Below are positions 19,229 to 32,957 of a stretch of 32,957 nucleotides of DNA, piece after piece (positions within the stretch are counted from its first letter, which is position 1; each line of letters opens with the position of its first letter). The position numbers and the translations under genes are program-made. The stretch is from Xanthobacteraceae bacterium (lineage in GTDB: Bacteria > Pseudomonadota > Alphaproteobacteria > Rhizobiales > Xanthobacteraceae), in the NCBI GenBank assembly GCA_030037895.1, contig JASHPW010000021.1, positions 1-32,957 of the forward strand, given 5' to 3'. Under the pieces are notes generated by a model, which made no database searches, was not told the origin of the DNA, and saw only the letters and a program-made list of their open reading frames with translations.

Positions 19229-19244
19229 TAAGTCAATGACTTAG
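19228..19244. repeat. 17-bp perfect inverted repeat flanking tRNA-Gly
   Basis: CTAAGTCAATGACTTAG has 8-bp perfect arms around one central base and begins at the first base of tRNA-Gly, on its 5' side. It lies where the tRNA promoter or start point would be. It could be an operator, a processing hairpin or chance. Confidence 0.5.
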
Positions 19245-19487
19245 AGATTTTCGTGTTGGGCACTTTTTTGCCGGACTCTTACCAAACCGACACGTCTGGC
19301 GTTTTGTTTGCCAAGCCGTCGCGTAAGATAATCCGGTCGCGACTTTCGTGCAACGCACTGACGCCCCTTCGCCGACAGAGGGCATGTGCCCGTTCACTAT
19401 CGCTCGCGCCGACCCTGACGCCTTCGGCAATTCGCTCAGAGAAAAACTAAACAAAGATCCCGCCGTCTCTGTTGCACTTCGCGCATC

Positions 19488-19730: not shown

Positions 19731-19753
19731 ATCGGCGATTTTCGTTCCCCGCG

Positions 19754-20881
19754 TCATGATGGTGGGCGATCCGCCGCTCTGGTCGGCTCCTGCGACTTGA
19801 TCAGATTGATCTGCTTCTCACTCAGCGCGCGGATGAAGTCCGGCAACGGGATGAAGCCGACGCTGTCGAGATATTTCGTGGCGTTGCCGCCCTGCAGCGA
19901 CACTGCCCACAGCAGAAAATGGCGTAGTGCGGCCGCGGTTTGTGGGTCAAATTGCCGCGTCTGGACCACGACATATTCGTAATTGATCAGCGGATACGAC
20001 TCATCCCCGGGCGCGAATACCAGGCTCAGTCGTTCGTCCGGCGGCGTACGCGGATCGAGCGATGACGCCGCCGCATTGATGGTATCCATTGTCGGCAGCA
20101 GAAAGTTTCCGCTCTGGTTCTCCAGCCTGGCGGTCCCAAGGCCGGCCTTGGCGATCGAGTCGCGGAAGCTGATGCCGACATAGGCGACCGAATAGGGCGT
20201 GTCCGCAGCCGCCTTCACCATGCCGTCGTTGCCGGTTGCGGTGCGTTCGCCCGCGACGCTCGGCCACGCGATGGTGGTGCCGTAGCCGATCCCGTCTTCC
20301 CAGGCCTGGGTCGAAAAATCGAGAAACTGTGTGAAGATGAACGTGTCGCCCGACGCGTCCGCGCGGCGGATCGGTACGATGGTCTGATGCGGCAACGCGA
20401 CGCCCGGGTTCAGCTTGGTGATCTGCGGCGCATCCCAGGCGGTGATCTTGCCGTTGTAGATTCCGGCGAGCGTCGGACCGTCGAGCTTCAATTCCGCACT
20501 ATTGAGGCCGGGGATATTGTAGTTCACCGTCTGCGCCGAGATGGCGACAGGGATGTTGGCGATGCCGGGATTCTGCTCGAACTGTTCGTCAGACATATAG
20601 GCGTCGGACGCGCCAATCTGCGCCTTGCCCGAAATCGCTGCGTCGATGCCCGCGCCGGAACCGGTCGCCGCCGCGGTCAGCACGATGCCGGGCGCCACCT
20701 TGGCGTAGTCCGGAATCCACCGCGTGAACAGCGGATAGAGCAGGGTCGACCCGGTCTCGTTGAGCGTGATGCTCGCCGCTTGCGCCGGCACCCCGGCCAG
20801 CATGCCAGTCCCGCATGCGATCAGCGTTGCCGCAAGCAGGCCCGGACGAAACCGACGGATACAATGGGAGAACATGCTCAT
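19754..20881 (-). CDS. pstS: PstS-like periplasmic phosphate-binding protein
   Basis: A 375-residue secreted protein: signal peptide about 1-36 (cleavage after AQA), then the PstS fold. Phosphate-contact motifs are recognisable: NETGSTLLYPLF (Thr/Ser of the first loop), GSGAGIDAAISGKAQIGASD and ADASGDTFIFTQFL. The length is close to PstS. Its ATG overlaps the stop of the upstream MFS gene in an ATGA (4 bp), so the two are translationally coupled. No pstC, pstA or pstB is in the window. An N-terminal Met two codons later is possible. It would bind phosphate or a phosphate-like oxyanion in the periplasm. Confidence 0.85.
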   Translation of the reverse strand: MSMFSHCIRRFRPGLLAATLIACGTGMLAGVPAQAASITLNETGSTLLYPLFTRWIPDYAKVAPGIVLTAAATGSGAGIDAAISGKAQIGASDAYMSDEQFEQNPGIANIPVAISAQTVNYNIPGLNSAELKLDGPTLAGIYNGKITAWDAPQITKLNPGVALPHQTIVPIRRADASGDTFIFTQFLDFSTQAWEDGIGYGTTIAWPSVAGERTATGNDGMVKAAADTPYSVAYVGISFRDSIAKAGLGTARLENQSGNFLLPTMDTINAAASSLDPRTPPDERLSLVFAPGDESYPLINYEYVVVQTRQFDPQTAAALRHFLLWAVSLQGGNATKYLDSVGFIPLPDFIRALSEKQINLIKSQEPTRAADRPPS

Positions 20882-22407
20882 GCCGCCACCTTTTTGCTTG
20901 CAACGCTTTGGCTGTCTTCATCACGGCCGATTTCATCGAGGTTCACGCCGGTGGTCTCGATCCGATACATCCAGGTGATCACCGCGCCGACGATCGAGGT
21001 GGCGATCAGCCCGTACAGAAGCGCGCGCGTTCCGATGCTGGCGAGTAGGACCGGAAACAAAAACGCGGTGGCGACGGCGCCGATTTTGGCAAAGGCGGCG
21101 GCGAAGCCGGCGCCCATGCCGCGCACCTCGGTGGGGAATACCTCGCCGGCGATCAGATAGGTCTGTGCATTCGGACCGAGATTGGTCATGAAGTCGAACA
21201 GCATGAAACCGGCGAAAATGAACGCGACCTTCGCCTCGCCGGCAAAATCGATGGAGAACGACGCCAGCAGCAGGCCGGCGGCGCAGCCGATGAAGCCGAT
21301 GATCTGCAGCTTGATGCGGCCGTATTTGTCGGCCAGCGCGATCGCGAAGAGGATTCCGATAATCAGTAATACATCGATCATCGCCGCACCCTTCGCGGCG
21401 AGGATGCTGTTGGCGATCATATCGCTCAAGCTGCGGATATGATCGGGACCTCCGCCAATCGCCGCGGCGAGAATGACCGGCGTGAAGATGCCGATGCCAT
21501 AGGTACCAAGATCCTGAATGAACCACGGCACCGAAGCAAAGATGGTGGCACGGCGATTGCGCTTGTTGAACAGCGCCCAAAACGAAGGTTTGCTACGCAG
21601 CTTGTGTTCGCCTGACGTTTCCGGCCGCACCAGCATGATATTGGTCGGATATCGCGGCTCACGGTGCAGCAAGCGGGTGACCGATACCTCAGCTGCCTCG
21701 TGCTCGCCGCGCACGGCGAGCCAGTTGGGGCTTTCGACGATAAAGAAGCGGCCGAGGGTCACGATAAGGGCCGGAATAAGTGCCGTGGCGTACATCCAGC
21801 GCCAAGCCGACAGATCGGGGTCGAGCACCAGAACAAGGCAGCCCATACCGGTGCCGCCCAATGCGCCGAGCGCCTGAAAGCCGAAGGCGCCGAGCACCAG
21901 CCTGCCGCGGGCGGTGCTCGGGACGCTCTCCGAGATAATCATGTGCGCAGTCGGATAGTCGCAGCCGAGCGCCAGTCCGAGTCCAAACAAGCAGATCGCG
22001 AGCGAGAGGAAGTTCGAACAAAGCAGCAGGAGCGCCAAAAAGGCGCAGAAGATAATCATCTCGGCAATGAACATCCGTTTGCGCCCGAAATAATCGGACA
22101 AGCCGCCCAGGAGCACCGAGCCAAACAAAATGCCGGCGAGGCTCGCGGCGCTGATGATGCCGTTCACGCCCGGGGGAATGTGGAATTGGCGCGTAATCAG
22201 CGGCAACGCCACGCCGGTCATGAAGACGACGTAGCCTTCGAAGAATTTTCCGGTGGCCGCCAGCGACCAGATGCGCCACTGCATGCCGGTCATCGGCGAA
22301 GTCTTCAACCGGGTGCCGTCGGACCAGACCGGCAGTTCGTCGATGTATTCCTGGACGGTCTTGGCCGCCGCAGGTTTCGGCCGGCCGGACTGCGTCGTGT
22401 CGTTCAT
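20878..22407 (-). CDS. MFS transporter, phosphate/sugar-symporter-like
   Basis: A 509-residue 12-TM major facilitator. The loop 2-3 motif GGLSDYFGRKRMF and the second-half ADKYGRIKLQ are intact. The segment TNLGPNAQTYLIAGEVFPTEVRG resembles the NFGPN...GEVFPT motif of the Pho84-type phosphate:H+ symporters within the sugar porter-like MFS (abridged). A hydrophilic N-terminus of about 45 residues precedes TM1. ATG 22407 is chosen for its GGGGGA site; ATG 22434 is also in frame. It is coupled by ATGA to the pstS-like gene and preceded by a Pho-box-like promoter. Substrate is inferred, not shown. Confidence 0.82.
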   Translation of the reverse strand: MNDTTQSGRPKPAAAKTVQEYIDELPVWSDGTRLKTSPMTGMQWRIWSLAATGKFFEGYVVFMTGVALPLITRQFHIPPGVNGIISAASLAGILFGSVLLGGLSDYFGRKRMFIAEMIIFCAFLALLLLCSNFLSLAICLFGLGLALGCDYPTAHMIISESVPSTARGRLVLGAFGFQALGALGGTGMGCLVLVLDPDLSAWRWMYATALIPALIVTLGRFFIVESPNWLAVRGEHEAAEVSVTRLLHREPRYPTNIMLVRPETSGEHKLRSKPSFWALFNKRNRRATIFASVPWFIQDLGTYGIGIFTPVILAAAIGGGPDHIRSLSDMIANSILAAKGAAMIDVLLIIGILFAIALADKYGRIKLQIIGFIGCAAGLLLASFSIDFAGEAKVAFIFAGFMLFDFMTNLGPNAQTYLIAGEVFPTEVRGMGAGFAAAFAKIGAVATAFLFPVLLASIGTRALLYGLIATSIVGAVITWMYRIETTGVNLDEIGRDEDSQSVASKKVAA

Positions 22408-22500
22408 GCTCGGATATCCCCCAAACTGTTTCATGAATCGTCCCGCACGCCGCCGTCGTCACTATCGCGACGTCCGCTCGCAGTGTTGCGCGCGGACGGA

Positions 22501-22535
22501 ATGCTACAGGACGGCTCATTTCACTTTTGTGACAG
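22501..22535 (-). promoter_or_regulatory. Candidate Pho box and -10 for the MFS-pstS operon
   Basis: On the minus strand CTGTCAC-AAAA-GTGAAAT (22535-22518) matches CTGTCAT-N4-CTGTCAT at 10 of 14 positions. It is followed after 11 bp by TAGCAT (22506-22501) as a -10. The predicted start near 22494 leaves a leader of about 87 nt. The layout, with the box replacing a -35 and a -10 about 10-11 bp later, is that of PhoB-activated promoters. Confidence 0.5.
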
Positions 22536-22594
22536 CGGAGCTTTGACGCGCGGAAGGAATTGCAAGTGACCGAATGACTCGCCGAGGCAAATTG

Positions 22595-22667
22595 AAAAAA
22601 TTTTTTACGTGGCTTTGCGAGGGGCGATCTGAGCGATCACATTCGAGCGCCCCGCAGCTCGCCACGT
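22595..22667. repeat. AT palindrome and long interrupted inverted repeat
   Basis: AAAAAATTTTTT (22595-22606) abuts a 20-bp imperfect inverted repeat (22607-22626 with 22648-22667; 14 of 20 positions pair, with perfect ACGTGGC and GGGGCG ends) around a 21-nt loop. It lies in the 400-bp gap between divergent operons. On the minus strand it would be a stem followed by A6 then T6. It could be a terminator of a short transcript, a protein site or a UP-like element. Confidence 0.5.
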
Positions 22668-22833
22668 GAATCAATCAAGCGGACTGGCACGCGCGGATTA
22701 TCCCCAGCCGACTGACGCTGTTGGCGACTAAAGACCCTCCTCTGTCACCCGGCACCAGCCCCTAGGCCGCTGCACAGATCTGTGACAGGATTACTACACT
22801 CAAATGTTAGTTCGGCGACAACACGTGGAGCCC

Positions 22834-23694
22834 ATGAGCTTGCAATGGCAGGCCCGGTCAACTTCCCTGGCCTGGTCGAATCCTCTGGCCTGGTGGTGGG
22901 GGCTGTTGACCCTCGTCAGCGGGACGAATATCGCGGTCTGGTGCTTTCTGTACCACCGGCTCTCCGAACGGCAGACTAGCGGGCTCGACAGCACGTCCGG
23001 CATCGAGCTCATGCTCTTGCTCTGCGCGGCCTATGTTTTTGGCTGCGCGTTCAGGTCGTTCCTTCCGCGCGCGGATGTTCAGCGGATCTGCTTGTTCGAC
23101 ACGCGGCTGTCGAGTGTTGTCGTCGGACGTTTGGTGGCAACCGTGGCCGAGATCTGCTTTGCGACGCAGTGGGTCGTTGTCTTGCGCCAACTTGGAACGA
23201 TGACGGGAGCGGATACTACATTGAACGCCGCGTGGGTTATCGTGCCGCTCATTCTCATCGCCGAATGTTTCTCATGGTATGCGGTGTTGACCACCGACTA
23301 TTTGGGCAGCGCCATCGAAAATTCGCTATGGGCCGTTGCCTTCTTCGCAGTCGGAATCGGTCTATTCCGGTTGCTACCGGAATTTGACGGCCCGGTACGC
23401 GTGGTCCTCGCCATCGCGATCATTGGGATTGCACTCTATCTTACTTTTCTCATGACTGTGGATGTCCCGATGTACCTGCGTCGATGGCGGGCCAAGCTCG
23501 CCAATGGCGGCAAGCTTCTAAGACCTCTCGAGGGCTTTCGTGACGTGAGCACGCGTTGGGTCGTAACGCACGACCTTGCTGAGTGGAAGGATGAGATTGC
23601 CTGGATGTTGCTTTATTTCAGCGCAGCGGTCTGGGCGAGCCTCGCGCTCTGCATTTTCTACTCGTTCGACAATCATCTCCCGCTGTCGCACTGA
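22834..23694 (+). CDS. Uncharacterised 7-TM membrane protein
   Basis: A 286-residue protein with seven hydrophobic helices and short loops; I recognise no family. Helices are near residues 14-38, 56-76, 96-116, 128-150, 157-177, 187-210 and 252-274. Arg/Lys-rich loops (LRRWRAKLANGGK) place one side in the cytosol. Two starts are possible: ATG 22834 (GGAG unusually close) and ATG 22804. The gene begins about 45 bp after the palindrome CACAGATCTGTG (22773-22784), which may be an operator. It lies between phosphate uptake and lipid genes, so a membrane or lipid role is plausible but unproven. Confidence 0.65.
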   Translation: MSLQWQARSTSLAWSNPLAWWWGLLTLVSGTNIAVWCFLYHRLSERQTSGLDSTSGIELMLLLCAAYVFGCAFRSFLPRADVQRICLFDTRLSSVVVGRLVATVAEICFATQWVVVLRQLGTMTGADTTLNAAWVIVPLILIAECFSWYAVLTTDYLGSAIENSLWAVAFFAVGIGLFRLLPEFDGPVRVVLAIAIIGIALYLTFLMTVDVPMYLRRWRAKLANGGKLLRPLEGFRDVSTRWVVTHDLAEWKDEIAWMLLYFSAAVWASLALCIFYSFDNHLPLSH

Positions 23695-24059
23695 AGCGAC
23701 ACCCCCAAGTTATCTCGTCGAACGCGTCAGCAGCAATTTGCAGACAGCATCCGAAAATAGTGCTCCGTCTCGTTTAGCAATAATCTCGCGAACCGTCTTG
23801 GCTCGCTGTCAGTTTGTTACTCCATCGCAAAAGAATCGACGGCCGCGCTGATATCCCCATTGCGGCGATCTCCGCCGGTTGTCGCACAAGGTCTCATCCG
23901 ACGACCACTTGCCGGCGTCGGGAGGGGCTTGATACCAGAAGTCTTTACCTCCGATCTAAAAGCTCACGGGGGAACCGTTGTCGGCGTAACAATAGTGTCG
24001 CAGATCGATGTGACAGTGCCCCGGCGAATCACCACGGACTCCCGCTGGAGCGGCTCACT
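23695..24059. other. Intergenic gap before the YbhN-type gene
   Basis: Some 365 bp without a credible gene. Plus-strand frames here (for example 23860-24294) have arginine- and serine-rich shadow composition and are dropped. One isolated CTGTCAG half-site lies near 23806-23812 without a good second half. The end carries the GGAG site that serves TTG 24060. Confidence 0.5.
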
Positions 24060-25163
24060 TTGGACGGCGCCTCGAACGTGCTGTGTGCCGCCGCGTCCAC
24101 AGCCCGCAAACGAATTGGTTGGAGGTCCGTTACCGGCGCCGTCAGCCTGTCGATCATCGCGGTCTCGGCGATCGCGCTGGATGCGTTGCTGCACAATATC
24201 GACGTCCGCGCCGTTATTGCCGCGGTACAAGCGCAGCCGCCCTCTGCGCTGCTGCTGGCGAGCGGGTTCGCCGCCGCAGGTTATCTTATGTTGACGGGCT
24301 ATGACGTATTTGCGTTACGCGCGATTGGCAGAAAGAACATACCTTATCGGGTGGCCGCTTTCGCCAGCTTTACAAGCTACACGATCGGACACAGTTTAGG
24401 TGCCACGATCCTCACCGCGGGCATTGTTCGCTATCGCGTTTATACACCGTGGGGCTTGAGGCTCCGTGAGATTGCGGCGATTGCCTTCATTACCAGTCTT
24501 ACTTACTGGCTCGGTACCGCTTTGGTGCTCGGGTTGGGCATGGTGTCCGTGCCGGAAGCGATCAGCGCCCTTGATCGGCTGCCGGCTCCTGGCAACCGTT
24601 TGCTTGGATTGGCAATACTCGTCGCACTTGCCGGCTATTTTGTCTGGCTTCTTTCCGCCCCACGCCGCATCGGCAAGGCCCATTGGAAAATTGTCATTCC
24701 CGGTCCCCGCTTGATGCTCCTGCAAATGTCGATCGCTGGCCTCGATCTCGTGTTCGTCGGGTCGGCGATGTATGTATTGCTCCCGCCGCAACCGACGCTC
24801 GGTTTCCTGCATTTGCTGACGGTTTTTGTCGCCTCGATGCTCATTGGCGTCGCCAGCCATGCACCGAGCAGTCTCGGCGTCCTGGAAGCTGCAATGTTCC
24901 TCGGCCTGCCGCAATTCAAAAAAGAGGAATTACTGGCTTGCCTTCTGACGTTTCGTCTCATTTATTTTATCATGCCGGCCGGCGCAGCAATGCTCCTTTT
25001 GGGGGGGCGCGAGCTGCAAAAAATTCTCAGTGGAATCAGCGTAAAACAGCGAGTGTGGCCGTCGCCTCACGGCCGAAAGGAAAATATGAGACGGCCGAGA
25101 GCCGAAAAAGTGCGGGGCGCGGCGTCAACTCGTGTGGACGTCCTGCCGCCGGAGAAAACGTGA
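24060..25163 (+). CDS. YbhN/UPF0104-type membrane protein (lysyl-PG synthase TM-domain family)
   Basis: About 367 residues with roughly eight TM helices in the pattern of the UPF0104/YbhN family, the flippase-like half of MprF. Typical features are the YDVFALRAIGRKNIPYR loop, SYTIGHSLGATILTAGIVRYR and HAPSSLGVLEAAMF. No aminoacyl-transferase domain is attached, so lipid translocation rather than lysylation is likely. The start is TTG 24060, with GGAG 9 nt upstream; no suitable ATG exists, and the open frame further upstream looks non-coding. Its stop overlaps the dgkA start in GTGA, indicating coupled translation. Confidence 0.8.
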   Translation: MDGASNVLCAAASTARKRIGWRSVTGAVSLSIIAVSAIALDALLHNIDVRAVIAAVQAQPPSALLLASGFAAAGYLMLTGYDVFALRAIGRKNIPYRVAAFASFTSYTIGHSLGATILTAGIVRYRVYTPWGLRLREIAAIAFITSLTYWLGTALVLGLGMVSVPEAISALDRLPAPGNRLLGLAILVALAGYFVWLLSAPRRIGKAHWKIVIPGPRLMLLQMSIAGLDLVFVGSAMYVLLPPQPTLGFLHLLTVFVASMLIGVASHAPSSLGVLEAAMFLGLPQFKKEELLACLLTFRLIYFIMPAGAAMLLLGGRELQKILSGISVKQRVWPSPHGRKENMRRPRAEKVRGAASTRVDVLPPEKT

Positions 25164-25513
25164 AAAGGCTCTATAACGCGACTGTCAATTCGCTGCGCGG
25201 CCTCCACTACGGCTTCCGGTACGAGGCAGCGCTGCGCGAAGAGGCGATCGTGCTCGCCGCAGCAGTTCCGTTCGGTGTCCTGATTGCGCCGACATGGGGC
25301 TGGTACGTGGCCATGATCGGCGCACCGTTGGCAGTCCTGAGCGTCGAATTTCTGAACACGTCTATCGAGAAGCTCGCCGACCATACGACTGAGGGACGAC
25401 ATACCGAGATCGGAACAGTCAAGGATTATGGCTCCGCCGCGGTGTTCTGCATGCTTTGTGTTACCGGCCTGATATGGATAGCGGCCGCGATCGTGCGCCT
25501 TGCTGCGCTTTGA
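25160..25513 (+). CDS. dgkA: Diacylglycerol kinase
   Basis: A 117-residue DgkA with three TM helices. The catalytic/Mg segment VEFLNTSIEKLADHT carries both conserved Glu residues (E63, E70), followed by the family's KDYGSAAVF. It converts diacylglycerol plus ATP to phosphatidic acid at the inner membrane, returning DAG to phospholipid synthesis. The GTG start at 25160 has GGAG 5 nt before it and overlaps the previous gene's stop by 4 bp. The longer open frame upstream is antisense-like coding noise. It precedes plcP, whose product would generate DAG. Confidence 0.92.
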   Translation: MKRLYNATVNSLRGLHYGFRYEAALREEAIVLAAAVPFGVLIAPTWGWYVAMIGAPLAVLSVEFLNTSIEKLADHTTEGRHTEIGTVKDYGSAAVFCMLCVTGLIWIAAAIVRLAAL

Positions 25514-25620
25514 CGTCAAGGATCTGGCTTCGACAACGCCGGGATACGGGACGCTCGGCGCCGTGGCAATTCGGTTGCCTCGGCCGCATACATTAACCAA
25601 ACAATCCGCGTTAACCTGCC

Positions 25621-25638
25621 GTGTCATCGTGCTGCAAT
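25621..25638 (+). promoter_or_regulatory. Candidate Pho box upstream of plcP
   Basis: GTGTCAT-CGTG-CTGCAAT matches CTGTCAT-N4-CTGTCAT at 11 of 14 positions, 45 bp before the plcP GTG. A possible -10 is TATTAC (25646-25651), 7 bp after the box; TATAAC at 25660-25665 is a better hexamer but too far for a classical PhoB layout. Confidence 0.5.
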
Positions 25639-25682
25639 GGAACGCTATTACCCAGCCCGTATAACTAACGCAGGCGTGATTC

Positions 25683-26504
25683 GTGGAACTTGCGCACGGT
25701 ACGATCGGGTTCCGCGCCCTTTTCATTTCCGATGTTCACCTCGGCGCACGCGGCTGCCAGGCGGATTGTCTACTTGACTTCCTGCGCTATCACGATGCTG
25801 AGACTATTTATCTGGTTGGCGACATCGTCGATGGCTGGCAACTGCGCGCCAGCTGGTACTGGCCGCAAACTCACAACGACGTCGTGCAAAAGCTGCTCCG
25901 CAAGGCGCGCAAAGGCAGTCGCCTCATCTATCTTCCCGGCAACCATGACGAGTTTCTGCGCGACTATTATGGCACACACTTCGGCGGCATCGAGGTGATG
26001 GAGACGGCGATTCATCTGTCCGCTGACGGTCGCCGCTATCTGGTCGTGCACGGCGATGCCTTCGATCTTGTGGTCAAGCACGCGCGGTGGCTCGCGCTGC
26101 TCGGCGACACGGCCTACGAGTTCGCAATTCTTGTCAACCGCTACTTCAATGCGGTGCGCCGGCGCCTGGGTTTTTCCTATTGGTCGCTGTCGCAATGGGC
26201 CAAACACAAGGTCAAGAATGCCGTCAATTACATCGGCGCCTTCGAGCAGACACTTGCTACCGAAGCGCAGCGCCGACAGGTTGACGGCGTGATCTGTGGC
26301 CATATCCATCATGCCGTGATCCACGATCGCTTCGGCGTCCGTTACATCAATTGCGGCGACTGGGTCGAGAGTTGCACCGCGGTCGTCGAGCACGCGGATG
26401 GGCGGTTGGAGATCATCACCTGGAGCGGTACGGAAGCTCTCGGCAAGCTGCCAGATCCGGATCCACCGCCGGGACTCGAAGCAAAAGCCGGCATGGCGGC
26501 TTGA
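25683..26504 (+). CDS. plcP: PlcP-like phospholipase C (calcineurin-fold metallophosphoesterase)
   Basis: A 273-residue metallophosphoesterase with complete motifs: DVHLG (D17, H19), GDIVDG (46-51), GNHDE (86-90), VHGD (122-125) and a late GHIHH. Sequence style (LLDFLRYHDAETIYLVGDI; YLPGNHDEFLRDYYG) matches rhizobial PlcP, which under phosphate limitation cleaves PC, PE and PG to diacylglycerol. The related LpxH is shorter and differs in the middle. The start is GTG 25683; no ATG fits. A Pho-box-like site lies 45 bp upstream. An Agt-type glycosyltransferase that would use its DAG is 5 kb away. Confidence 0.85.
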   Translation: MELAHGTIGFRALFISDVHLGARGCQADCLLDFLRYHDAETIYLVGDIVDGWQLRASWYWPQTHNDVVQKLLRKARKGSRLIYLPGNHDEFLRDYYGTHFGGIEVMETAIHLSADGRRYLVVHGDAFDLVVKHARWLALLGDTAYEFAILVNRYFNAVRRRLGFSYWSLSQWAKHKVKNAVNYIGAFEQTLATEAQRRQVDGVICGHIHHAVIHDRFGVRYINCGDWVESCTAVVEHADGRLEIITWSGTEALGKLPDPDPPPGLEAKAGMAA

Positions 26505-26515
26505 ACCGTGTCTAA

Positions 26516-26557
26516 CGGCACGAAGCGCCATTGCACAGTATCAACCGTGCCGGATTT
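26516..26557 (+). terminator. Possible terminator hairpin after plcP
   Basis: CGGCACG (26516-26522) and CGTGCCG (26547-26553) form a 7-bp stem with a 24-nt loop, followed by GATTTT. It lies 11 bp after the plcP stop and overlaps the convergent SemiSWEET 3' end. The loop is long and the T tract short, so this is tentative. Confidence 0.3.
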
Positions 26558-26813
26558 TCAGTGCCAGAATGGCTGCCGTTATCGCCAGCGTTGCGGCGCT
26601 TGAGCCGATCAGGGGGGTATCTGCGACCGCCAGGCCATAGACGAGCCAAAGCCCGACGCCGGCGACGCAAAGCAGAGTGCCCGGTAACGATATGGCCCTC
26701 GTCTCCCGATCGCGCACGATTTTCAGCGCCTGTGGCACCCAGCACAGTGTCGTGAGAATGGCCGCGACTATGCCGATGGCATCGACCAGCGCCGGACGCA
26801 GCGGTTCGAGCAT
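26541..26813 (-). CDS. SemiSWEET family transporter
   Basis: A 90-residue three-helix protein. The first helix ends in the PQ-loop motif CWVPQALKIVRDRE (P27, Q28), then SLPGTLLCVAGVGLWLVYG and a third helix. This length and layout fit bacterial SemiSWEETs, which dimerise to transport sugars or other small solutes. It converges on plcP, and its start is 190 bp from the divergent phoU. No substrate can be read from sequence. Confidence 0.85.
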   Translation of the reverse strand: MLEPLRPALVDAIGIVAAILTTLCWVPQALKIVRDRETRAISLPGTLLCVAGVGLWLVYGLAVADTPLIGSSAATLAITAAILALKIRHG

Positions 26814-26930
26814 ATCGTCTCACGTTACCGAATCGAAAACGATGCGATCAGAGCTTGTCCGACTGTTTCGTGTGGCGTTGATGACGCCAATAGCGCGATC
26901 GAGGTGTGCATTGCGCGGATAGTCGCGCAA

Positions 26931-26964
26931 TTGTCATCAGGCGGTCATCGATAAAGCCTAGAAT
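26931..26964 (+). promoter_or_regulatory. Pho box and -10 upstream of phoU
   Basis: TTGTCAT-CAGG-CGGTCAT (26931-26948) matches CTGTCAT-N4-CTGTCAT at 12 of 14 positions and is followed after 10 bp by TAGAAT (26959-26964), a good -10. This is the spacing of PhoB-activated promoters. Transcription would begin near 26971, 32 nt before the phoU ATG. It is the strongest Pho box seen in the window. Confidence 0.7.
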
Positions 26965-27002
26965 CATCAATGTCTTGCGATAGACGCTGGAAAGCGGCCA
27001 CC

Positions 27003-27737
27003 ATGATCTATTCCGATCACACAGCGAAGGTGTTCGACGCCGATTTGATCAAGCTTACGCAGAAAGTGGCGGAGATGGGGGGACGTGCCCAGAAGCAGAT
27101 CATCGATGCCATGGACGCGCTCGACCGCCGCAATATGGTTCTCGCCCAACAAGTTATTGCCGCGGATGGAGCGGTCGACGAGCTGCAACGGCAGATCGAG
27201 CAAAAAGCCGTGGAGACGATCGCGTTGCGCCAGCCGATGGCAGGCGATTTGCGTTTGCTCGTTGCGATTCTGCGGATCGCGAACGACCTCGAGCGAATCG
27301 GGGATTTGGCCAAGAACATCGCCAAGCGGGCCATCGCCATGGCCGACGAGCAGCCGTCGCGGACTCTGGCGCGCGGCTTGCGCCACATGACGACTCTCGC
27401 CGTCGCGCAGCTGACTGTCGTGCTCGACAGCTTTGTCACCGGCAGCGCGCTGAAAGCGCTGAAGGTTTGGGAGGACGACAAGGATATCGACACGCTTTAT
27501 GTATCGCTGTTTCGCGAGCTGCTCACCTACACGATGGAAGATCCAGAATCGATTCCGATATGCATACATCTGCTGTTTTGCGCCAAGAACATCGAGCGCG
27601 TCGGCGATCATACGACCAATATCGCGGAAGCCGTCCACTACACGGTCGAAGGTCATGCAATCGCCGGCGAGCGACCGAAGAGGGATGCGTTCGGCTATGC
27701 GGGGGAGACGCGCGTCAGTCGCGGCGTCACTGCATAA
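27003..27737 (+). CDS. phoU: PhoU, phosphate-signalling regulator
   Basis: A 244-residue all-helical PhoU with both metal-binding repeats: RIANDLERIGDLAKNI (about 91-106) and AKNIERVGDHTTNIAE near residue 200. PhoU links the Pst transporter to the PhoR-PhoB two-component system and represses the Pho response in high phosphate. ATG 27003 has GGAAAG 9 nt upstream; the frame is open 11 codons further but overlaps the predicted transcript start. Unusually, it stands without pstSCAB or phoBR and has its own Pho box. It converges on psd with a 12-bp gap. Confidence 0.95.
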   Translation: MIYSDHTAKVFDADLIKLTQKVAEMGGRAQKQIIDAMDALDRRNMVLAQQVIAADGAVDELQRQIEQKAVETIALRQPMAGDLRLLVAILRIANDLERIGDLAKNIAKRAIAMADEQPSRTLARGLRHMTTLAVAQLTVVLDSFVTGSALKALKVWEDDKDIDTLYVSLFRELLTYTMEDPESIPICIHLLFCAKNIERVGDHTTNIAEAVHYTVEGHAIAGERPKRDAFGYAGETRVSRGVTA

Positions 27738-27749
27738 ACGCGTGTGCCG

Positions 27750-28613
27750 TCACCGAGTCCGCATCAGAGGCTGGCCAACCCGAAGCATCGCCCCGTCTAC
27801 GACATTATCGCAGAGCGCGAACCGGTCCGGGGCAAAGACGATGATCGTTGAACCGTGTTCAAACCAGCCCAATTCGTCGCCTTTACGGAATTCCGCATTG
27901 CAGGCGCCAACACTTTGGCCTTCTTGCTTGAGCCGCTGAAGGTCGATGAAATTCAACCGAATGGCGGAAACAAGAATGGCACCGACCGGAACCAGAGTGA
28001 ATGCGTCACCAGTTGCGGCGAGCCTTGCGTGCAGGACCGCACGCTCGTTCTTGCAATAAAGTCTCTCAACGCGCCGCAGCGCCGCCGGATTGACGTTCCA
28101 GGAGTCTCCCGGAATGTACCTGACATGCTCGACGGCGCAGTCGTGAGGCGCGTGAAACCGGTGGTACATTGCCGAAGTGAGCCGCAGCGTCACATAGCAA
28201 CCGTCGCGATGGGATTCGACGAGGTCCTGATCGCCGATAAGTTCGGCCAGCGAATAGGTTTTGCCCTTGATTTGATAGAGTTCGGTCCCGCAAATTCGCC
28301 CATGCGCACCGACGATCCCATCGCATGGACTGATCAAAATCTCCAGCGTCGGATCGATGGGACGCGCGCCGGGCTTCAATCGGCGCGTGAAGCAATCGTG
28401 CATGCTGCGGAACTCGTTGCTGTTTGCCTCGCTCAGATCGAGTCCGGAGAAGAAACTCCATAAGCCGATGGAGACATCGCGCACCATCGGGTGTTCGATG
28501 CGACTGAAACGACGCACGAGTCGACTTACCAATCGGCGAGGCATCCGATTGGTGAGGAAGAAGTTGACGTCTTCCTGTTGCAGCATCCGCAACAAGCGGG
28601 TCTTGATCGTCAT
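27750..28613 (-). CDS. psd: Phosphatidylserine decarboxylase proenzyme
   Basis: A 287-residue pyruvoyl enzyme that makes PE from phosphatidylserine at the inner membrane. The self-cleavage motif is intact as HGST (S255 becomes the pyruvoyl group), the catalytic Asp is D98 in SPCDGIVG, and the conserved His is H154 in YHRFHAP. KGKTYSLAELIG is also typical. The layout resembles the longer E. coli-type Psd rather than the compact form common in Rhizobiales, so it may be a second copy. ATG 28613 is chosen, with GGGAG upstream; the longer frame lacks family similarity. It is divergent from the aminotransferase, only 35 bp apart. Confidence 0.88.
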   Translation of the reverse strand: MTIKTRLLRMLQQEDVNFFLTNRMPRRLVSRLVRRFSRIEHPMVRDVSIGLWSFFSGLDLSEANSNEFRSMHDCFTRRLKPGARPIDPTLEILISPCDGIVGAHGRICGTELYQIKGKTYSLAELIGDQDLVESHRDGCYVTLRLTSAMYHRFHAPHDCAVEHVRYIPGDSWNVNPAALRRVERLYCKNERAVLHARLAATGDAFTLVPVGAILVSAIRLNFIDLQRLKQEGQSVGACNAEFRKGDELGWFEHGSTIIVFAPDRFALCDNVVDGAMLRVGQPLMRTR

Positions 28614-28648
28614 CTCACTTTCAACTCCCGAGGCTATGGCTTGATTCG

Positions 28649-30322
28649 ATGAATTGGGATGACCTGACCTTTGCCTCTTACGGCCTCGGCGCGGCCGCGC
28701 CCGCGTCGGTTGCGACGGTGAAATGGCAGCTGTGGCCTGGCAGCAACGCGGTTCGATCGCTCGTCGGGCGTGCCGGTGTGGCACGACACATTGCATCGCT
28801 GGTGCGCTTTTATGACTATGATGATGATCGCTTTTTCTGCGCGGACGATGCGCCGCGTGACATTGCCGCGGGTCGTTGCGCTGGGTTCATGCGGCTCTCG
28901 ACCCTTTATCGAACGCGTTTTGCCAAAACCACGGCACTCACCGCCGACGCGGCGAGCAGCATACCGGACCTGCAATTCACCTCGGCCTATCGTGTGCCGT
29001 TTCAGTTCAGCCGCTTCGTGCGCCGCCATCTCCCGGTCGGAGGGTTCCTGCAATCGTCTGCGGGCGTCACCGTGGAGGATCTTGACGGCAACCGCTTCTA
29101 CGATCTGAGCGGCTCCTACGGCGTCAATGTTCTCGGATACGATTTCTACAAAGACGCGATCGCGCGCGCCGTCGAGCGCGTACATGCGCTCGGCCCGGTG
29201 CTCGGGGCGTATCACCCCATCGTTGCCGAGAATGTGCAGCGGTTGAGGCAGATTTCCGGGCTCGACGAGGTGTCGTTCCACATGTCCGGAACTGAGGCGG
29301 TGATGCAGGCAGTGCGGCTGGCGCGCTACCACACGGGCCGTCGGCGCATCGTGCGCTTTATCGGCGCCTACCACGGCTGGTGGGGTGAGGTGCAGCCGGG
29401 GATCGGCAATCCGGTGCCGGCGCGCGATACGGTCACGTTGCCGGAGCTTTCCGAGGCAACGCTGCGCGCTCTGTACAGGCGACGCGACATAGCTTGCGTG
29501 CTGGTGAACCCGCTCCAGGCGCTGCATCCAAATGCGAACGCGCCGACTGATTCTGCGTTGCTCGACAGCGCACGCAGTGCGCATTTTGACAGGCAGGCCT
29601 ACCGCAAATGGCTGCAGCGGCTGCGTGCGATATGCAGCGAACGCAACATCGTGCTGATCTTCGACGAGGTGTTTGTCGGTTTCCGGCTCGCGCGCGGCGG
29701 CGCCCAGGAATATTTCGGTGTCGGCGCCGATCTCGTCACCTATGGCAAGACTGTCGCTGGCGGTTTGCCGATCGGCGTCGTCTGTGGGCGTAAGGAGCTG
29801 ATGAAGCGCTTCCGCGATGATCGGCCGATCGACGTATGCTTTGCCCGCGGCACCTTCAACTCGCACCCATACGTGATGGCGGCGATGAACGAGTTCCTCC
29901 GCTACATCGATACGCCGCAGGGGCGCGAGATCTATCGCGGCCTCGACCGGGTCTGGAACGAGAGGACGGGGCAGCTCAATGCATGGCTTACCGAAGAGGG
30001 CTTGCCAGTGCGGCTTGCTAACATGTCGTCCATCTGCACACTCTGCTACACGCAGCCGTGTCGCTACAATTGGATGCTGCAATATTATCTGCGCGCCGAG
30101 GGTTTGGCGCTGAGCTGGGTTGGTACCGGACGGCTCGTCTTCAGCCTCAATTATTCGGATGCGGATTTCGCCAGGGTGGCCGAACGCCTCGTCGCTGCAG
30201 CCAGGAGCATGAACGAGGACGGCTGGTGGTGGCGCAACCCGAGAATGACCAACGGCTCCATCAAGCGCACGATCCTCAAGGAGATGGTCGCCCATCGCCT
30301 GTTTCCAAGCCGCTGGAAATAA
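28649..30322 (+). CDS. Class-III PLP-dependent aminotransferase, glutamate-semialdehyde-mutase-like
   Basis: A 557-residue protein. After an N-terminal extension of about 130 residues, the fold-type I class III domain shows MSGTEAVMQAVRLAR (phosphate-binding region), AYHGWWG, FDEVFVGFRL (D339) and YGKTVAGGLPIG (K367, the Schiff-base Lys). It resembles HemL-type aminomutases but is about 120 residues longer and has an unusual C-terminus ending HRLFPSRWK, so it is probably not the haem-pathway enzyme. No ribosome site precedes ATG 28649. Placed among lipid genes and divergent from psd, it may make an amino-containing headgroup or precursor; this is inference. Confidence 0.83.
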   Translation: MNWDDLTFASYGLGAAAPASVATVKWQLWPGSNAVRSLVGRAGVARHIASLVRFYDYDDDRFFCADDAPRDIAAGRCAGFMRLSTLYRTRFAKTTALTADAASSIPDLQFTSAYRVPFQFSRFVRRHLPVGGFLQSSAGVTVEDLDGNRFYDLSGSYGVNVLGYDFYKDAIARAVERVHALGPVLGAYHPIVAENVQRLRQISGLDEVSFHMSGTEAVMQAVRLARYHTGRRRIVRFIGAYHGWWGEVQPGIGNPVPARDTVTLPELSEATLRALYRRRDIACVLVNPLQALHPNANAPTDSALLDSARSAHFDRQAYRKWLQRLRAICSERNIVLIFDEVFVGFRLARGGAQEYFGVGADLVTYGKTVAGGLPIGVVCGRKELMKRFRDDRPIDVCFARGTFNSHPYVMAAMNEFLRYIDTPQGREIYRGLDRVWNERTGQLNAWLTEEGLPVRLANMSSICTLCYTQPCRYNWMLQYYLRAEGLALSWVGTGRLVFSLNYSDADFARVAERLVAAARSMNEDGWWWRNPRMTNGSIKRTILKEMVAHRLFPSRWK

Positions 30323-30340
30323 GAATCCGCTCGGCAGCAC

Positions 30341-30982
30341 TCAACTCGTTCTCAGCGCTGCATCGGCCGCATCCTCATCCCATTCGCCGCCGATGGCAGG
30401 GTCGATCAGTTCGCCGCGCAGGAGCGCTACCGGCGCCTTGTGGTACAGCTTGATGTCGTGGAACGGGTCGGTAAGAATCTTGGTCGCCCAGACGAGTCCG
30501 GTCTGCACGTCCTTGATAACGAATAACTGAACGACGCGGAACAGCACGCCGCCGACGCCGAGTCCGAGCCAGATCATGCCAACCTGGCGGACGAACTCGG
30601 TCTTGCTGCCGGCGGGGGAAAACAGGCCGAAAAAAGTGGAATTGAAAAAAAGCGGCAGGGGTGACAACGCCCAAATCGTCAACAGCACGATCTTGCGCTG
30701 CAGATTATAGCCGACCTTAATCTCCTCCTTGTATTCGTGGCTGGCTTGGTTGACGTGGTCGTAACCCTTGGGCTCGAAGAAGAAGTGACCGGTCTGCCGC
30801 GTCGTCATTGCGACCAGCCAAGCCGCCAGCGCCGAAACGGCCGGATCCTTGAACATCATCGCATAAGAAAACAAGAAGCTCAGCGCACTCACAAAATGCA
30901 GCGATTGATTGATTCTGCTGTGATGATAATAGCGATGATCATCCCAACGTTGGACACGCAGCGTCTCACGAAAACCGGCCAT
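30341..30982 (-). CDS. Mpo1-like (DUF962-type) membrane protein, tentative
   Basis: A 213-residue protein with about four TM helices. The N-terminal half carries YYHHSRINQSLHF (N25, H29) and TGHFFFEP (H66, E70). This H/N-x3-H and GHxxxE pattern recalls the Mpo1/DUF962 family; yeast Mpo1 is an iron dioxygenase in alpha-oxidation of 2-hydroxy fatty acids. The C-terminal part (residues about 150-213) is soluble and acidic at the end. ATG 30982 has a perfect GGAGG 5 nt upstream. Third gene of an apparent agt-pmtA operon, after a 137-bp gap. The family assignment is by pattern only. Confidence 0.55.
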   Translation of the reverse strand: MAGFRETLRVQRWDDHRYYHHSRINQSLHFVSALSFLFSYAMMFKDPAVSALAAWLVAMTTRQTGHFFFEPKGYDHVNQASHEYKEEIKVGYNLQRKIVLLTIWALSPLPLFFNSTFFGLFSPAGSKTEFVRQVGMIWLGLGVGGVLFRVVQLFVIKDVQTGLVWATKILTDPFHDIKLYHKAPVALLRGELIDPAIGGEWDEDAADAALRTS

Positions 30983-31119
30983 ATGTGCCTCCGCATTTTG
31001 TCCTCGGCAACGCTATGGCGATTCGATGAATCCCACGTGACAAACCCGAGGCCGTGAAATTCCGGCTGCGGGCTTGAGGCGCGCGATAGGTGGGAGCAGT
31101 CCGCGCGCCGCCTCACCGA

Positions 31120-31821
31120 TTACGCGACCGCGCGGGCCGCTCCAGCCATCCCGTCCTCCTTGGGCAAGCCACTTTCCTTGCAAAAACGGATCAGGGAGAA
31201 ATGTCCGAAGGGCGGCATGCTGCGCCGTTCGACCAGCTCCATGCCGCGAGATTCTTTCGCCCATTGCGAAAAGCGTTGAAATGAAAACTCGGTACGCCAG
31301 CCGAGCTTGCGCGCTGCCGGTGCAAACCACTTCTCCAGCGTGCGCCGCAGTCCGGCTTCGGCGCCGACACGACTCACCAGGACGATTTCTCCCCCCGGCC
31401 GCAGGACGCGCGCGAATTCGTCGAGCGCGGCTTCGGGATTGGGCACTGTCGTGATGACGTACTGCGCCACGATAACGTCAAACGAGGCGTCCGGAAAATC
31501 CAGATGCTCGGCATCCATGACGACAAGCGCCTCGACATTGTTGAGGCCATGTTCGGCCACTCGCTGCTGGGCCTTGCGGAGCATCGGCTCGGATACGTCG
31601 ATGCCCCAGATGCGCAGATCGGACGAATAATACGGCAGCGATAATCCGGTCCCGACCCCGACCTCGAGGACACGGCCGCCGATGCGCTCGGCGGCTTCGA
31701 TCGCAGCATGGCGACCATGCTCGAAGACGGGACCGAATACGACGTCGTAAACCGGCGCCCAACGCGCATAGGCTTTGGTAATGATTTCCTTGTTGAGTTC
31801 GGCGCGGAATGCATCGGGCAT
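31120..31821 (-). CDS. pmtA: Phosphatidylethanolamine N-methyltransferase (Rhodobacter-type PmtA)
   Basis: A 233-residue class I SAM methyltransferase. Motif I is VLEVGVGTGLSLPYY (about 51-65), with an acidic post-I residue in GIDVSEPML. The start region AYARWAPVYDVVFGPVFEHG is typical of the Rhodobacter-type PE methyltransferases (PmtA/PmtX), which methylate PE towards PC. A quinone-pathway UbiE-like role is the main alternative. ATG 31821 has a GGGAGGG site. It lies 39 bp after agt on the same strand. Confidence 0.8.
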   Translation of the reverse strand: MPDAFRAELNKEIITKAYARWAPVYDVVFGPVFEHGRHAAIEAAERIGGRVLEVGVGTGLSLPYYSSDLRIWGIDVSEPMLRKAQQRVAEHGLNNVEALVVMDAEHLDFPDASFDVIVAQYVITTVPNPEAALDEFARVLRPGGEIVLVSRVGAEAGLRRTLEKWFAPAARKLGWRTEFSFQRFSQWAKESRGMELVERRSMPPFGHFSLIRFCKESGLPKEDGMAGAARAVA

Positions 31822-31860
31822 GGTGTGTCCCTCCCTCGGGTTTTGCTGGAGCCTGTTGCT

Positions 31861-32913
31861 TCAGACGAGCGCCCCGTCGGGCAGCTCGGTCGGATTCGCA
31901 ACGCGAACATGTGTCGTGACGACTTTGCCGACATGTCCGATGAATTGCCGCGCACTGCGCTCCCAAGAGTGTTGCAGTGCAAAAGCTCGGCACGCCTCGC
32001 GTGAGACTTGCAGCGCTCCGAGACAGGCGGCGCGCAGGTCTTCGCTCAGCACGCCGACCGGGTGAGTGCCGATGACATCCTTCGGCCCGGTGACGGGAAA
32101 TGCTGCGATCGGCACGCCGCTCGCCAGCGCCTCGAGCTGCACGATGCCGAATGTGTCGGTGCGGCTGGGAAAGACGAAAACATCGGCCGTCGCCAAGCAG
32201 CCTGCCAAGGTGCCGTTTTCCAGCTGGCCGAGAAATTTCACGGCAGGAAAACGAGCCTTCAGCTCCGCCTCCATCGGACCTTTGCCGACCACGACCTTGG
32301 TGCCGGGGAGTTCAAGGGACAAAAATGCCTCCAGGTTCTTTTCCACGGCGACGCGGCCGACGCAGATGAAGATCGGGCGCGAAAATTCCATGGCGATGGC
32401 GCGATCTGGCCTGAACAACTCGATGTCGACCCCGCGTGTCCACAGTCCGAGGTTGTTGAAGCCCCGCTCGCTCAACTCGCTCATCAACGACGGCGTAGCG
32501 ACCATCGTCACGGTCGCCGCGGCATGAAATCGCCGCAGCGCTGCATAGATCCATTGCTGTGGAACCGGCACGCGGGCGGAAATGTATTCGGGAAACCGGG
32601 TCGTGTAGCTTGTCGTGAACGGCCGACCTCGACGCCGGCAATAGGAACGCACGGCGTGGCCGAGCGGCCCTTCGGTTGCGATATGGATGGCGTCCGGCTG
32701 GCTCTCCTCGATCCGGCGGATGATCCGGCTGCGGCGGGGGACGGCCAAGCGCAGGCCGGGATAGGTGGGCACCGGCACCGTCCGATGGCCTTCTGGCGAA
32801 AGAAAATCGACCGTCACACCAAGGCTGCGCGCGGCGCGCTGGAGCGCAGTCAAGGTTCGCAGCACGCCATTGACCTGTGGATACCAAGCATCCGTTGCGA
32901 TCAGAACGCGCAT
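31861..32913 (-). CDS. agt: Agt-like diacylglycerol glycosyltransferase (GT4)
   Basis: A 350-residue GT-B fold enzyme starting MRVLIATDAWYPQVNGVLRT. The C-terminal half has the nucleotide-sugar site: FICVGRVAVEKNLEAFL and PSRTDTFGIVQLEALASG, holding the paired Glu region of GT4. Sequence style (HIATEGPLGHAVRSYCRRRG; TSYTTRFPEYISARV) matches Agt, which glycosylates diacylglycerol made by PlcP, giving mono-glucosyl or glucuronosyl lipid in phosphate-starved alphaproteobacteria. It appears to head an operon with pmtA and the Mpo1-like gene. Only 44 bp of upstream DNA is in the window, so its promoter cannot be judged. Other GT4 acceptors are possible. Confidence 0.83.
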   Translation of the reverse strand: MRVLIATDAWYPQVNGVLRTLTALQRAARSLGVTVDFLSPEGHRTVPVPTYPGLRLAVPRRSRIIRRIEESQPDAIHIATEGPLGHAVRSYCRRRGRPFTTSYTTRFPEYISARVPVPQQWIYAALRRFHAAATVTMVATPSLMSELSERGFNNLGLWTRGVDIELFRPDRAIAMEFSRPIFICVGRVAVEKNLEAFLSLELPGTKVVVGKGPMEAELKARFPAVKFLGQLENGTLAGCLATADVFVFPSRTDTFGIVQLEALASGVPIAAFPVTGPKDVIGTHPVGVLSEDLRAACLGALQVSREACRAFALQHSWERSARQFIGHVGKVVTTHVRVANPTELPDGALV

Positions 32914-32957
32914 TCATTGGTTCCGGGAGATATGTGGGTCCTCACCTACGAATCGCC

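What the first reader, a model, noticed from the sequence alone, without database searches (positions are those of the whole stretch)
19754..32913. Candidate phosphate-limitation membrane-lipid remodelling island
Over 13 kb nearly every gene concerns phosphate or membrane lipid: PstS-like and MFS uptake, PhoU, PlcP, Agt, DgkA, YbhN-type, Psd and PmtA. Known biology links PlcP and Agt in replacing phospholipids by glycolipids under phosphate limitation. Here they share a region with enzymes that would recycle DAG (DgkA), rebuild PE (Psd), methylate it (PmtA) and perhaps flip lipids (YbhN). Three Pho-box-like sites lie at promoter positions. The aminotransferase, Mpo1-like protein and 7-TM protein are not in the classical pathway and may be new components.
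Basis: partly seen in the sequence, partly recalled or inferred. Interest (0 to 1): 0.8.

Follow-up and report, generated by a model that had tools for sequence, protein, structure and literature searches.

The report
Phosphate-starvation membrane lipid gene cassette
A small set of lipid enzymes that travels together across distantly related bacteria, and that looks switched on when phosphate is scarce, probably makes a nitrogen-bearing membrane lipid that has yet to be identified.

Summary
Gene calls are largely right, but the 13-kb island as drawn is shared only with the nearest MAGs. Inside it is a wider unit: a second PS-decarboxylase-type enzyme (Psd2), a class III aminotransferase (AMT) and an Mpo1-like protein. 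In the 80 loci most similar by AMT, Psd2 is present in 79 and Mpo1-like in 77, with a GT4 glycosyltransferase in 64 and PmtA in 57. Of 398 evenly drawn Pseudomonadota, 25 carry AMT; 18 of these have PlcP (E<=1e-35), and the other 7 carry a fusion of an unknown PHP-like domain to GT4 beside AMT. Pho-box-like sites (>=11/14) stand at the Psd2/AMT start in 37 of 37 Bradyrhizobium/Nitrobacter loci and 12 of 42 others; controls 19 of 470 and 15 of 349. AMT is nearest to the mycosubtilin-synthase beta-keto aminotransferase. A role in phosphate-starvation lipid remodelling is likely; the product is unknown. Against: the window's own box is weak (10/14), associations are not phylogeny-corrected, and there are no expression or lipid data.

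The parts
27750..28613 (-). Psd2: second, cassette-type phosphatidylserine-decarboxylase family enzyme (listed ORF 27750-28796; start inferred at the ATG at 28611-28613 that is conserved in relatives)
   Evidence: PF02666 179.6 bits; TIGR00163 162.6, cut-off 111.75; found with AMT in 79 of 80 loci; 41 cassette Psds form one side of a branch (100/96) apart from 7 other Psds of cassette genomes
28649..30322 (+). AMT: class III PLP-type aminotransferase with an N-terminal helix that looks like a membrane anchor in orthologues
   Evidence: PF00202 125.9 bits; profile best in PDB 6kfm mycosubtilin synthase AMT, 206.7 bits, against 151.5 for the best GSA aminomutase; Foldseek E about 1e-27 to the same entries; hydrophobic N-terminus in 79 of 98 orthologues, weaker in the window copy
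30341..30982 (-). Mpo1-like, helical, probably membrane protein
   Evidence: PF06127 21.8 bits, cut-off 24; 40 of 45 orthologues match at E<=0.01; with AMT in 77 of 80 loci; AlphaFold pLDDT 86.5
31120..31821 (-). PmtA-type phospholipid N-methyltransferase, accessory, mostly in alphaproteobacterial copies
   Evidence: 8ys9 152.6 bits; in 57 of 80 loci
31861..32913 (-). GT4 glycosyltransferase (Agt-like), accessory
   Evidence: PF13692 65.4 bits; a match in 64 of 80 loci, at low identity in beta/gamma copies
28607..28624 (+). Pho-box-like site at the Psd2/AMT divergent start (10/14 here, 11-13/14 in Bradyrhizobium/Nitrobacter)
25683..26504 (+). PlcP-type phosphoesterase: partner of the cassette, adjacent mainly in close relatives
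   Evidence: PF00149; PlcP in 18 of 25 cassette genomes
25621..25638 (+). Pho-box-like site 11/14 before plcP
26931..26948 (+). Pho-box-like site 12/14 before phoU
26970..27737 (+). PhoU
   Evidence: TIGR02135 227.5, cut-off 130.25
25160..25513 (+). DgkA
   Evidence: PF01219 81.6 bits
23814..25163 (+). YbhN/LPG_synthase_TM-type membrane protein (true start probably later)
   Evidence: PF03706 34.1 bits, cut-off 33.4
22804..23694 (+).
   Evidence: no Pfam match at E<=0.001, best E 0.029 to YbgE; homologue in 8 of 80 loci
26541..26813 (-).
   Evidence: NF037968 83.5 bits, cut-off 80
20878..22434 (-). MFS transporter, substrate not shown
   Evidence: PF00083 164 bits; phosphate:H+ symporter model below cut-off
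19754..20881 (-). PstS
   Evidence: TIGR00975 323.9, cut-off 205

Best explanation
The finding contains a horizontally spread, probably PhoB-controlled lipid cassette whose core is Psd2, AMT and the Mpo1-like protein, usually with a GT4 glycosyltransferase and, in Alphaproteobacteria, a PmtA methyltransferase. Under phosphate limitation a phospholipase C (PlcP, or in some lineages the PHP-like/GT4 fusion) would strip phospholipids to diacylglycerol and the glycosyltransferase would make glycolipid, as in known PlcP-Agt systems. The core is inferred to add a nitrogen-bearing partner lipid: the probably membrane-anchored AMT would put an amine on a beta-keto or semialdehyde carbonyl of a lipid-bound substrate, Psd2 would decarboxylate a serine-type head group to leave an amine, the Mpo1-like protein would do an oxidative step on the same lipid, and PmtA would N-methylate the amine. 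Shown by comparison: the linkage, the separate Psd2 clade, the phospholipase-type partner, the recurrent promoter motif. Inferred: that PhoB binds, the order of steps, the substrates and the product.
For: Psd2 with AMT in 79 of 80 and Mpo1-like in 77 of 80 loci chosen by AMT alone (the best 80 of 571 relatives, and 37 of them Bradyrhizobium/Nitrobacter). In the evenly drawn sample 25 of 398 genomes carry AMT, and 24 of these 25 show Psd2 and Mpo1-like near it; the 25th (G310) sits on a 4.4-kb contig (the window). Linkage survives a change of order and strand in six genomes. Pairwise-distance correlations of the three proteins are 0.89-0.91 (Pearson; Spearman 0.74-0.82) over 88 loci. PlcP (E<=1e-35) or the fusion is present in 25 of 25, never both. 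Pho-box score >=11/14 at the Psd2/AMT start: 37 of 37 and 12 of 42, against 19 of 470 and 15 of 349 starts of other genes. The non-coding second half-site scores >=5/7 in 10 of 34 non-Bradyrhizobium loci (window included; 9 of 80 loci dropped for want of a start codon in register) at the right spacing and in 0-2 of 34 at 29 other spacings. Before Agt in Bradyrhizobium/Nitrobacter 27 of 36 reach >=11/14 (random intervals about 2%). One copy has an OlsF ornithine-lipid synthase next to it (816 bits, cut-off 620), another a UDP-glucose dehydrogenase.
Against: No expression or lipid data. The window's own box at this start is weak (10/14), and its AMT N-terminus lacks the strong hydrophobic stretch of most relatives (1.16). 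Only 12 of 42 loci outside Bradyrhizobium/Nitrobacter have a good box, and one half-site overlaps the Psd2 start codon, so part of it is coding. Outside Bradyrhizobium/Nitrobacter only 1 of 13 Agt upstream regions reaches >=11/14; before Mpo1-like it is 3 of 36 and 11 of 41, before PmtA 0 of 36 and 3 of 21. The PlcP association (Fisher p = 0.0004) and the distance correlations are not corrected for phylogeny. PmtA and GT4 are not universal, so steps that use them cannot be the core function. No solved structure resembles the Mpo1-like model (best Foldseek E 2.4), so its chemistry rests on a weak family match.
Confidence: 0.5

Rival explanations
1. PE/PC maintenance: Psd2 is simply an extra PS decarboxylase that with PmtA keeps PE and PC supplied while PlcP degrades them; AMT and the Mpo1-like protein serve fatty-acid turnover and are co-regulated rather than in one pathway.
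For: Psd2 passes the PS-decarboxylase equivalog cut-off and its profile matches solved PS decarboxylases 7cnw/6l06 at 143 bits; PmtA matches a solved PE N-methyltransferase.
Against: 24 of 25 carriers show at least one further Psd match (one of them weak and partial); Psd2 is a separate clade with a long stem; AMT and Mpo1-like are more constant neighbours of Psd2 than PmtA is and stay linked after rearrangement.
Confidence: 0.22
2. Beta-amino acyl lipid: AMT acts like the MycA domain on beta-ketoacyl thioesters to give 3-amino fatty acids that are built into a phosphate-free lipid; Psd2 and the Mpo1-like protein tailor it.
For: MycA AMT is the nearest solved relative by sequence and by fold; MycA AMT aminates a beta-ketothioester with Gln as donor (PMC3870968, passages read).
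Against: Identity to MycA is only about 25%; neither carrier-protein docking nor a ketoacyl source was examined; the N-terminal helix suggests a membrane-lipid rather than a carrier-bound substrate.
Confidence: 0.13
3. Recovery of nitrogen and phosphate: AMT works as a phosphoethanolamine phospho-lyase or transaminase on head groups freed by PlcP.
For: Some class III enzymes are phosphoethanolamine phospho-lyases (recalled, no call); such a step would suit phosphate starvation.
Against: The nearest relatives are AMT/GSA-aminomutase types; the likely membrane anchor is unexpected for a soluble substrate; Psd2 and Mpo1-like are left unexplained.
Confidence: 0.07
4. The whole 13-kb stretch is one functional island, as first proposed.
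For: Gene order from PlcP to Agt is kept in L029-L032, and L029 also has PstS, MFS, YbhN and DgkA.
Against: Elsewhere the left-hand genes are rarely seen with the cassette: PstS 1, MFS 3, DgkA 4, SemiSWEET 4, PhoU 6, YbhN 8, 7-TM 8, PlcP 13 of 80 (flanks of at most 10 kb, so some could lie just outside).
Confidence: 0.08

Closest known systems
PlcP-Agt phosphate-limitation lipid remodelling (Phaeobacter, SAR11, Methylosinus; PMC4796936 and PMC9239053, passages read)
   Same: PlcP and a GT4 glycosyltransferase in the genome, PhoB-type sites, phosphate-limitation logic
   Different: In Bradyrhizobium the GT sits with PmtA, Mpo1-like, AMT and Psd2, and PlcP lies elsewhere; 'aminotransferase' and 'phosphatidylserine decarboxylase' do not occur in the main text of PMC9239053, and 'aminotransferase' does not occur in PMC4796936 (listing)
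Betaine-lipid pathway BtaAB
   Same: A phosphate-starvation lipid with N-methylation, like what the PmtA-bearing copies could do
   Different: No BtaA match in the 25 sampled carriers; 3 of 48 carriers of the own family do have one; the genes differ
Ornithine-lipid synthesis OlsBA/OlsF
   Same: Phosphate-free aminolipid; an OlsF lies next to one copy
   Different: No shared genes; strong OlsB/OlsF-domain matches (over 75 bits) in 11 of 25 carriers and in 29 of the 40 PlcP-bearing non-carriers that I picked
Mycosubtilin synthase AMT domain (MycA)
   Same: Nearest solved relative of AMT
   Different: Stand-alone, probably membrane-anchored protein, about 25% identical, not part of a PKS/NRPS

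Membership tests
PlcP-dependent lipid remodelling | PlcP homologue in the genome | tested here: met
   window 25683-26504; 18 of 25 carriers at E<=1e-35, the other 7 have the PHP-like/GT4 fusion
PlcP-dependent lipid remodelling | Lipid glycosyltransferase | tested here: inconclusive
   GT4 domains present; among the nearest NCBIfam models are lipid GTs, but all 19 are below cut-off
PlcP-dependent lipid remodelling | PhoB control | tested here: inconclusive
   Recurrent Pho-box-like sites; binding not tested; window box at Psd2/AMT weak
PlcP-dependent lipid remodelling | Glycolipid made in low phosphate | not testable with these tools
   needs lipidomics
Phosphatidylserine decarboxylase | Family score and pyruvoyl-forming GST motif | tested here: met
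   TIGR00163 162.6, cut-off 111.75; G254 S255 T256 invariant in 43 sequences; that GST is the cleavage site is recalled
Phosphatidylserine decarboxylase | Substrate is PS | not testable with these tools
   separate clade from other Psds of the same genomes
Class III aminotransferase | PF00202 score and a conserved lysine (K368 in A8) | tested here: met
   125.9 bits, cut-off 30.5; K368 invariant in 38 sequences; that it binds PLP is inferred
Mpo1 2-hydroxy fatty acid dioxygenase | PF06127 gathering score | tested here: not met
   21.8 against 24 for the window protein; 40 of 45 orthologues match at E<=0.01. So not filed as Mpo1, only Mpo1-like
PmtA | Match to a characterised PmtA | tested here: met
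   8ys9, 152.6 bits over residues 12-209; the equivalog NF045882 is not reached, 166.8 against 390
BtaAB betaine-lipid pathway | BtaA (PF11899) in the genome | tested here: not met
   no match in G000 or in the other 24 sampled carriers
Phosphate:H+ symporter (MFS) | TIGR00887 cut-off | tested here: not met
   115.5 against 610.3

The most novel reading that the evidence does not exclude
The Psd2-AMT-Mpo1-like core is an undescribed pathway to a phosphate-free zwitterionic or cationic lipid, perhaps a beta-amino-acid or betaine-type lipid, which takes the place that BtaAB or ornithine lipids take in other bacteria, and which spread across Alpha-, Beta- and Gammaproteobacteria including the root-nodule genus Bradyrhizobium. 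In one branch the whole remodelling kit (phosphoesterase, glycosyltransferase, AMT, Psd2, Mpo1-like) is packed into one operon by a PHP-like/GT4 fusion that replaces PlcP.
Probability: 0.25. Interest if true: 0.8.

Novelty: new variant of a known kind. Interest (0 to 1): 0.6.

Why it matters
Soil and freshwater bacteria, Bradyrhizobium among them, often meet low phosphate, yet which phosphate-free lipids they make is, to my knowledge, poorly mapped. A conserved three-enzyme core with an unusual, probably membrane-bound aminotransferase and a separate decarboxylase gives a concrete target: delete one gene, starve for phosphate, read the lipids. The exchange of PlcP for a phosphoesterase-like/glycosyltransferase fusion also points to a possible second route from phospholipid to glycolipid.

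Tried and rejected
The island as a tRNA-borne insertion: G+C is 0.62-0.68 over the left of the window and 0.575-0.626 to the right of a tRNA-Gly, but no direct or inverted repeat of 24 bases or more was found in 18900-32957, and the cluster lies at the 5' side of the tRNA; not pursued.

Mutual exclusion with betaine lipids: BtaA in 0 of 25 carriers against 9 of 40 PlcP-bearing non-carriers that I picked by hand (p = 0.01). In 218 genomes of the own family: carriers 48, BtaA 58, both 3, p = 0.00016. But by genus the pattern vanishes (5 of 47 genera hold both, p = 1). Kept as a weak hint only.

Fold of the Mpo1-like protein: good model, no useful PDB match. PHP assignment of the fusion's N-terminus: rests on motifs seen by eye (HCH, NHN, PHP, GGSDDH); Pfam shows no PHP match at E<=10, and neither the single sequence nor the profile finds a PHP relative in the PDB, so it is only PHP-like.

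A first ORF-clustering script was swamped by antisense ORFs and was replaced by a codon-scored one. Alignment A1 used the wrong strand, redone as A2. In the Psd tree an eighth housekeeping Psd (L110, the window genome's own) was not picked up by my script, and three of the seven others sit on a very long branch, perhaps from crude trimming.

Of the ten paper searches none listed a paper on this cassette, but each listed only its top 6 to 15 papers. Searches paired lipid or phosphate terms with aminotransferase, Psd or a PHP domain; one search looked for Mpo1/DUF962. The library lacks most subscription journals and no supplements were read.


Full report
What is in the window. The contig (G000:C143, 32,957 bases of a 3.27-Mb, about 90% complete assembly) carries gyrB, recF, dnaN and dnaA on the left and a tRNA-Gly at 19154-19228. 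From there to the contig end lie PstS, an MFS transporter, a 7-TM orphan, a YbhN-type protein, DgkA, PlcP, SemiSWEET, PhoU, Psd, a class III aminotransferase (AMT), an Mpo1-like protein, PmtA and a GT4 glycosyltransferase. The contig stops 44 bases beyond the Agt start, so the cluster may go on. The nearest named relatives are Xanthobacteraceae MAGs (L029-L032, AMT 74-82% identical).

Which part is a unit. In six relatives with a true AMT orthologue (63-66% identity), Agt, PmtA, Mpo1-like, AMT and Psd stay together; the eight left-hand genes were not found in the 22-40 kb fetched around them. Found in the 80 loci: Psd 79, Mpo1-like 77, GT4 64, PmtA 57, PlcP 13, 7-TM 8, YbhN 8, PhoU 6, DgkA 4, SemiSWEET 4, MFS 3, PstS 1 (loci cut short by contig ends count as misses, and the 10-kb flank can hide distant genes). 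37 of the 80 are Bradyrhizobium or Nitrobacter; among the other 43 (Alpha-, Beta-, Gammaproteobacteria) my codon-scored gene calls place Mpo1-like in 41 and Psd in 40.

A fairer sample. In 398 Pseudomonadota genomes drawn evenly by the tool, 25 have AMT (E<=1e-60, lowest score 793 bits). With the window (1), (6; 17 of 18), 24 of the 25 have Psd and Mpo1-like near AMT; the 25th contig (G310) is 4.4 kb long. In six genomes (G209, G281, G306, G363, G401, G543) order and strand differ: AMT, then an 888-958-residue protein with a C-terminal GT4, then Psd and Mpo1-like, all in one direction. Linkage that survives rearrangement speaks for shared function. Distances among AMT, Psd and Mpo1-like correlate at 0.89-0.91 (Pearson; Spearman 0.74-0.82) over 88 loci (no correction for shared descent). 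For AMT and Mpo1-like the window is about as far from Bradyrhizobium (0.33, 0.31) as from beta- and gammaproteobacterial copies such as L055 and L078 (0.31-0.33; for Psd 0.41 against 0.45-0.47, same call), which fits horizontal spread.

The phospholipase partner. PlcP (E<=1e-35) is in 149 of 398 genomes and in 18 of the 25 carriers (Fisher p = 0.0004, not phylogeny-corrected). The remaining seven are those in which the fusion follows AMT (six intact, G310 cut by its contig end). The fusion is found in 8 of 398 genomes; the eighth, G438, has only a fragment in a 78%-complete genome. So at these thresholds PlcP and the fusion never coincide and together cover all 25. The fusion's N-terminal part has metal-ligand-like motifs by eye, but no profile supports a PHP domain.

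Regulation. In the window the best Pho-box-like sites (CTGTCAT-N4-CTGTCAT, a recalled consensus) are 12/14 before phoU and 11/14 before plcP; shuffles give on average 0.2 sites at >=12 and 1.4 at >=11 in the whole window. At the Psd/AMT start 37 of 37 Bradyrhizobium/Nitrobacter loci and 12 of 42 others reach 11/14, against 19 of 470 and 15 of 349 starts of other genes in the same loci. One half-site overlaps the Psd start codon; the other is non-coding, scores at least 5/7 at the right 11-base step in 10 of 34 other loci against 0-2 of 34 at 29 other spacings (9 of 80 loci without a start codon in register were dropped), and is followed by a -10-like element and the AMT start (by eye). The window copy itself is weak, 10/14. 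Before Agt 27 of 36 Bradyrhizobium/Nitrobacter loci reach 11/14, but only 1 of 13 others; before Mpo1-like 3 of 36 and 11 of 41; before PmtA 0 of 36 and 3 of 21; random intervals about 2%.

The enzymes. Psd2 is a second Psd: 24 of 25 carriers have two or more Psd matches (in G281 the second is weak and partial), and the 41 cassette Psds tested fall together (100/96) apart from seven others of carrier genomes, of which three sit on a very long branch. PS-decarboxylase scoring and motif are kept. AMT is nearest to the aminotransferase domain of mycosubtilin synthase (206.7 bits against 151.5 for GSA aminomutase; Foldseek ranks 1 and 2), which aminates a beta-ketothioester (PMC3870968, passages). 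In 79 of 98 orthologues the N-terminal stretch is hydrophobic (17-residue Kyte-Doolittle mean >=1.6), against 1.5% of internal segments, and the model of the Methylocapsa orthologue has one helix over residues 2-34, so AMT is probably membrane-anchored; the window copy is weaker (1.16). The Mpo1-like protein matches PF06127 weakly and its model (pLDDT 86.5) matches no solved fold.

Other phosphate-free lipids. Next to one copy is an OlsF, next to another a UDP-glucose dehydrogenase. BtaA has no match in the 25 carriers and is rare in carriers of the own family (3 of 48), but the effect disappears by genus. Strong OlsB/OlsF-domain matches (over 75 bits) are in 11 of 25 carriers and 29 of the 40 non-carriers I picked; the ten own-family carriers have none (about 30-33 bits in eight, no match in two). 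This hints that the cassette may fill the place of a phosphate-free aminolipid pathway, no more.

Reading. Module-level role (phosphate-starvation lipid remodelling): likely, about 0.75. That the core makes a nitrogen-bearing lipid by amination and decarboxylation is my best guess, and the overall statement gets 0.5. The exact lipid is unknown. PlcP-Agt remodelling is known (PMC4796936, PMC9239053, passages read); my ten paper searches listed no paper on this core. Tentative DGCC-type betaine lipids and DGTA lipids have been reported from groundwater, the pathway for DGCC being called unknown there (PMC7242380, passages); linking them to this cassette would be speculation.

Noticed in passing
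L147:3674-6355, L150:2344-5025, L151:6908-9784, L145:6375-9110, L146:11697-14375, L149:2719-5385: Unknown, PHP-like N-terminal domain fused to GT4; in 398 genomes found only in 7 AMT carriers that lack PlcP plus one fragment genome; a candidate one-protein replacement for PlcP and Agt.
   Followed up: partly
L147:8101-9858: Bifunctional ornithine-lipid synthase OlsF (816 bits, cut-off 620) directly after the Mpo1-like gene.
   Followed up: no
window 22804-23694; L045, L032, L082, L064, L048, L056: Unnamed membrane-protein family with invariant motifs (GCAFRS, VPMY), recurring in 8 of 80 loci including Betaproteobacteria.
   Followed up: partly
window 28649-28760: The AMT N-terminus of the window and of L029 has diverged from the otherwise conserved LSxAKHRSLxGHS stretch; the window copy also lacks a strong hydrophobic helix.
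   Followed up: no
window 19154-32957: G+C is 0.575-0.626 right of the tRNA-Gly against 0.62-0.68 on the left with its dnaA-dnaN-recF-gyrB block; no flanking repeats found.
   Followed up: partly
window 26541-26813: SemiSWEET sugar transporter between plcP and phoU, kept in four close relatives (L029-L032).
   Followed up: no
L042, L082, L092, L101 record titles: MAGs titled Nitrosovibrio, Bordetella parapertussis and Asaia bogorensis carry environmental-type cassettes; the L042 Psd groups with Acetobacteraceae copies, so some titles may be wrong.
   Followed up: no
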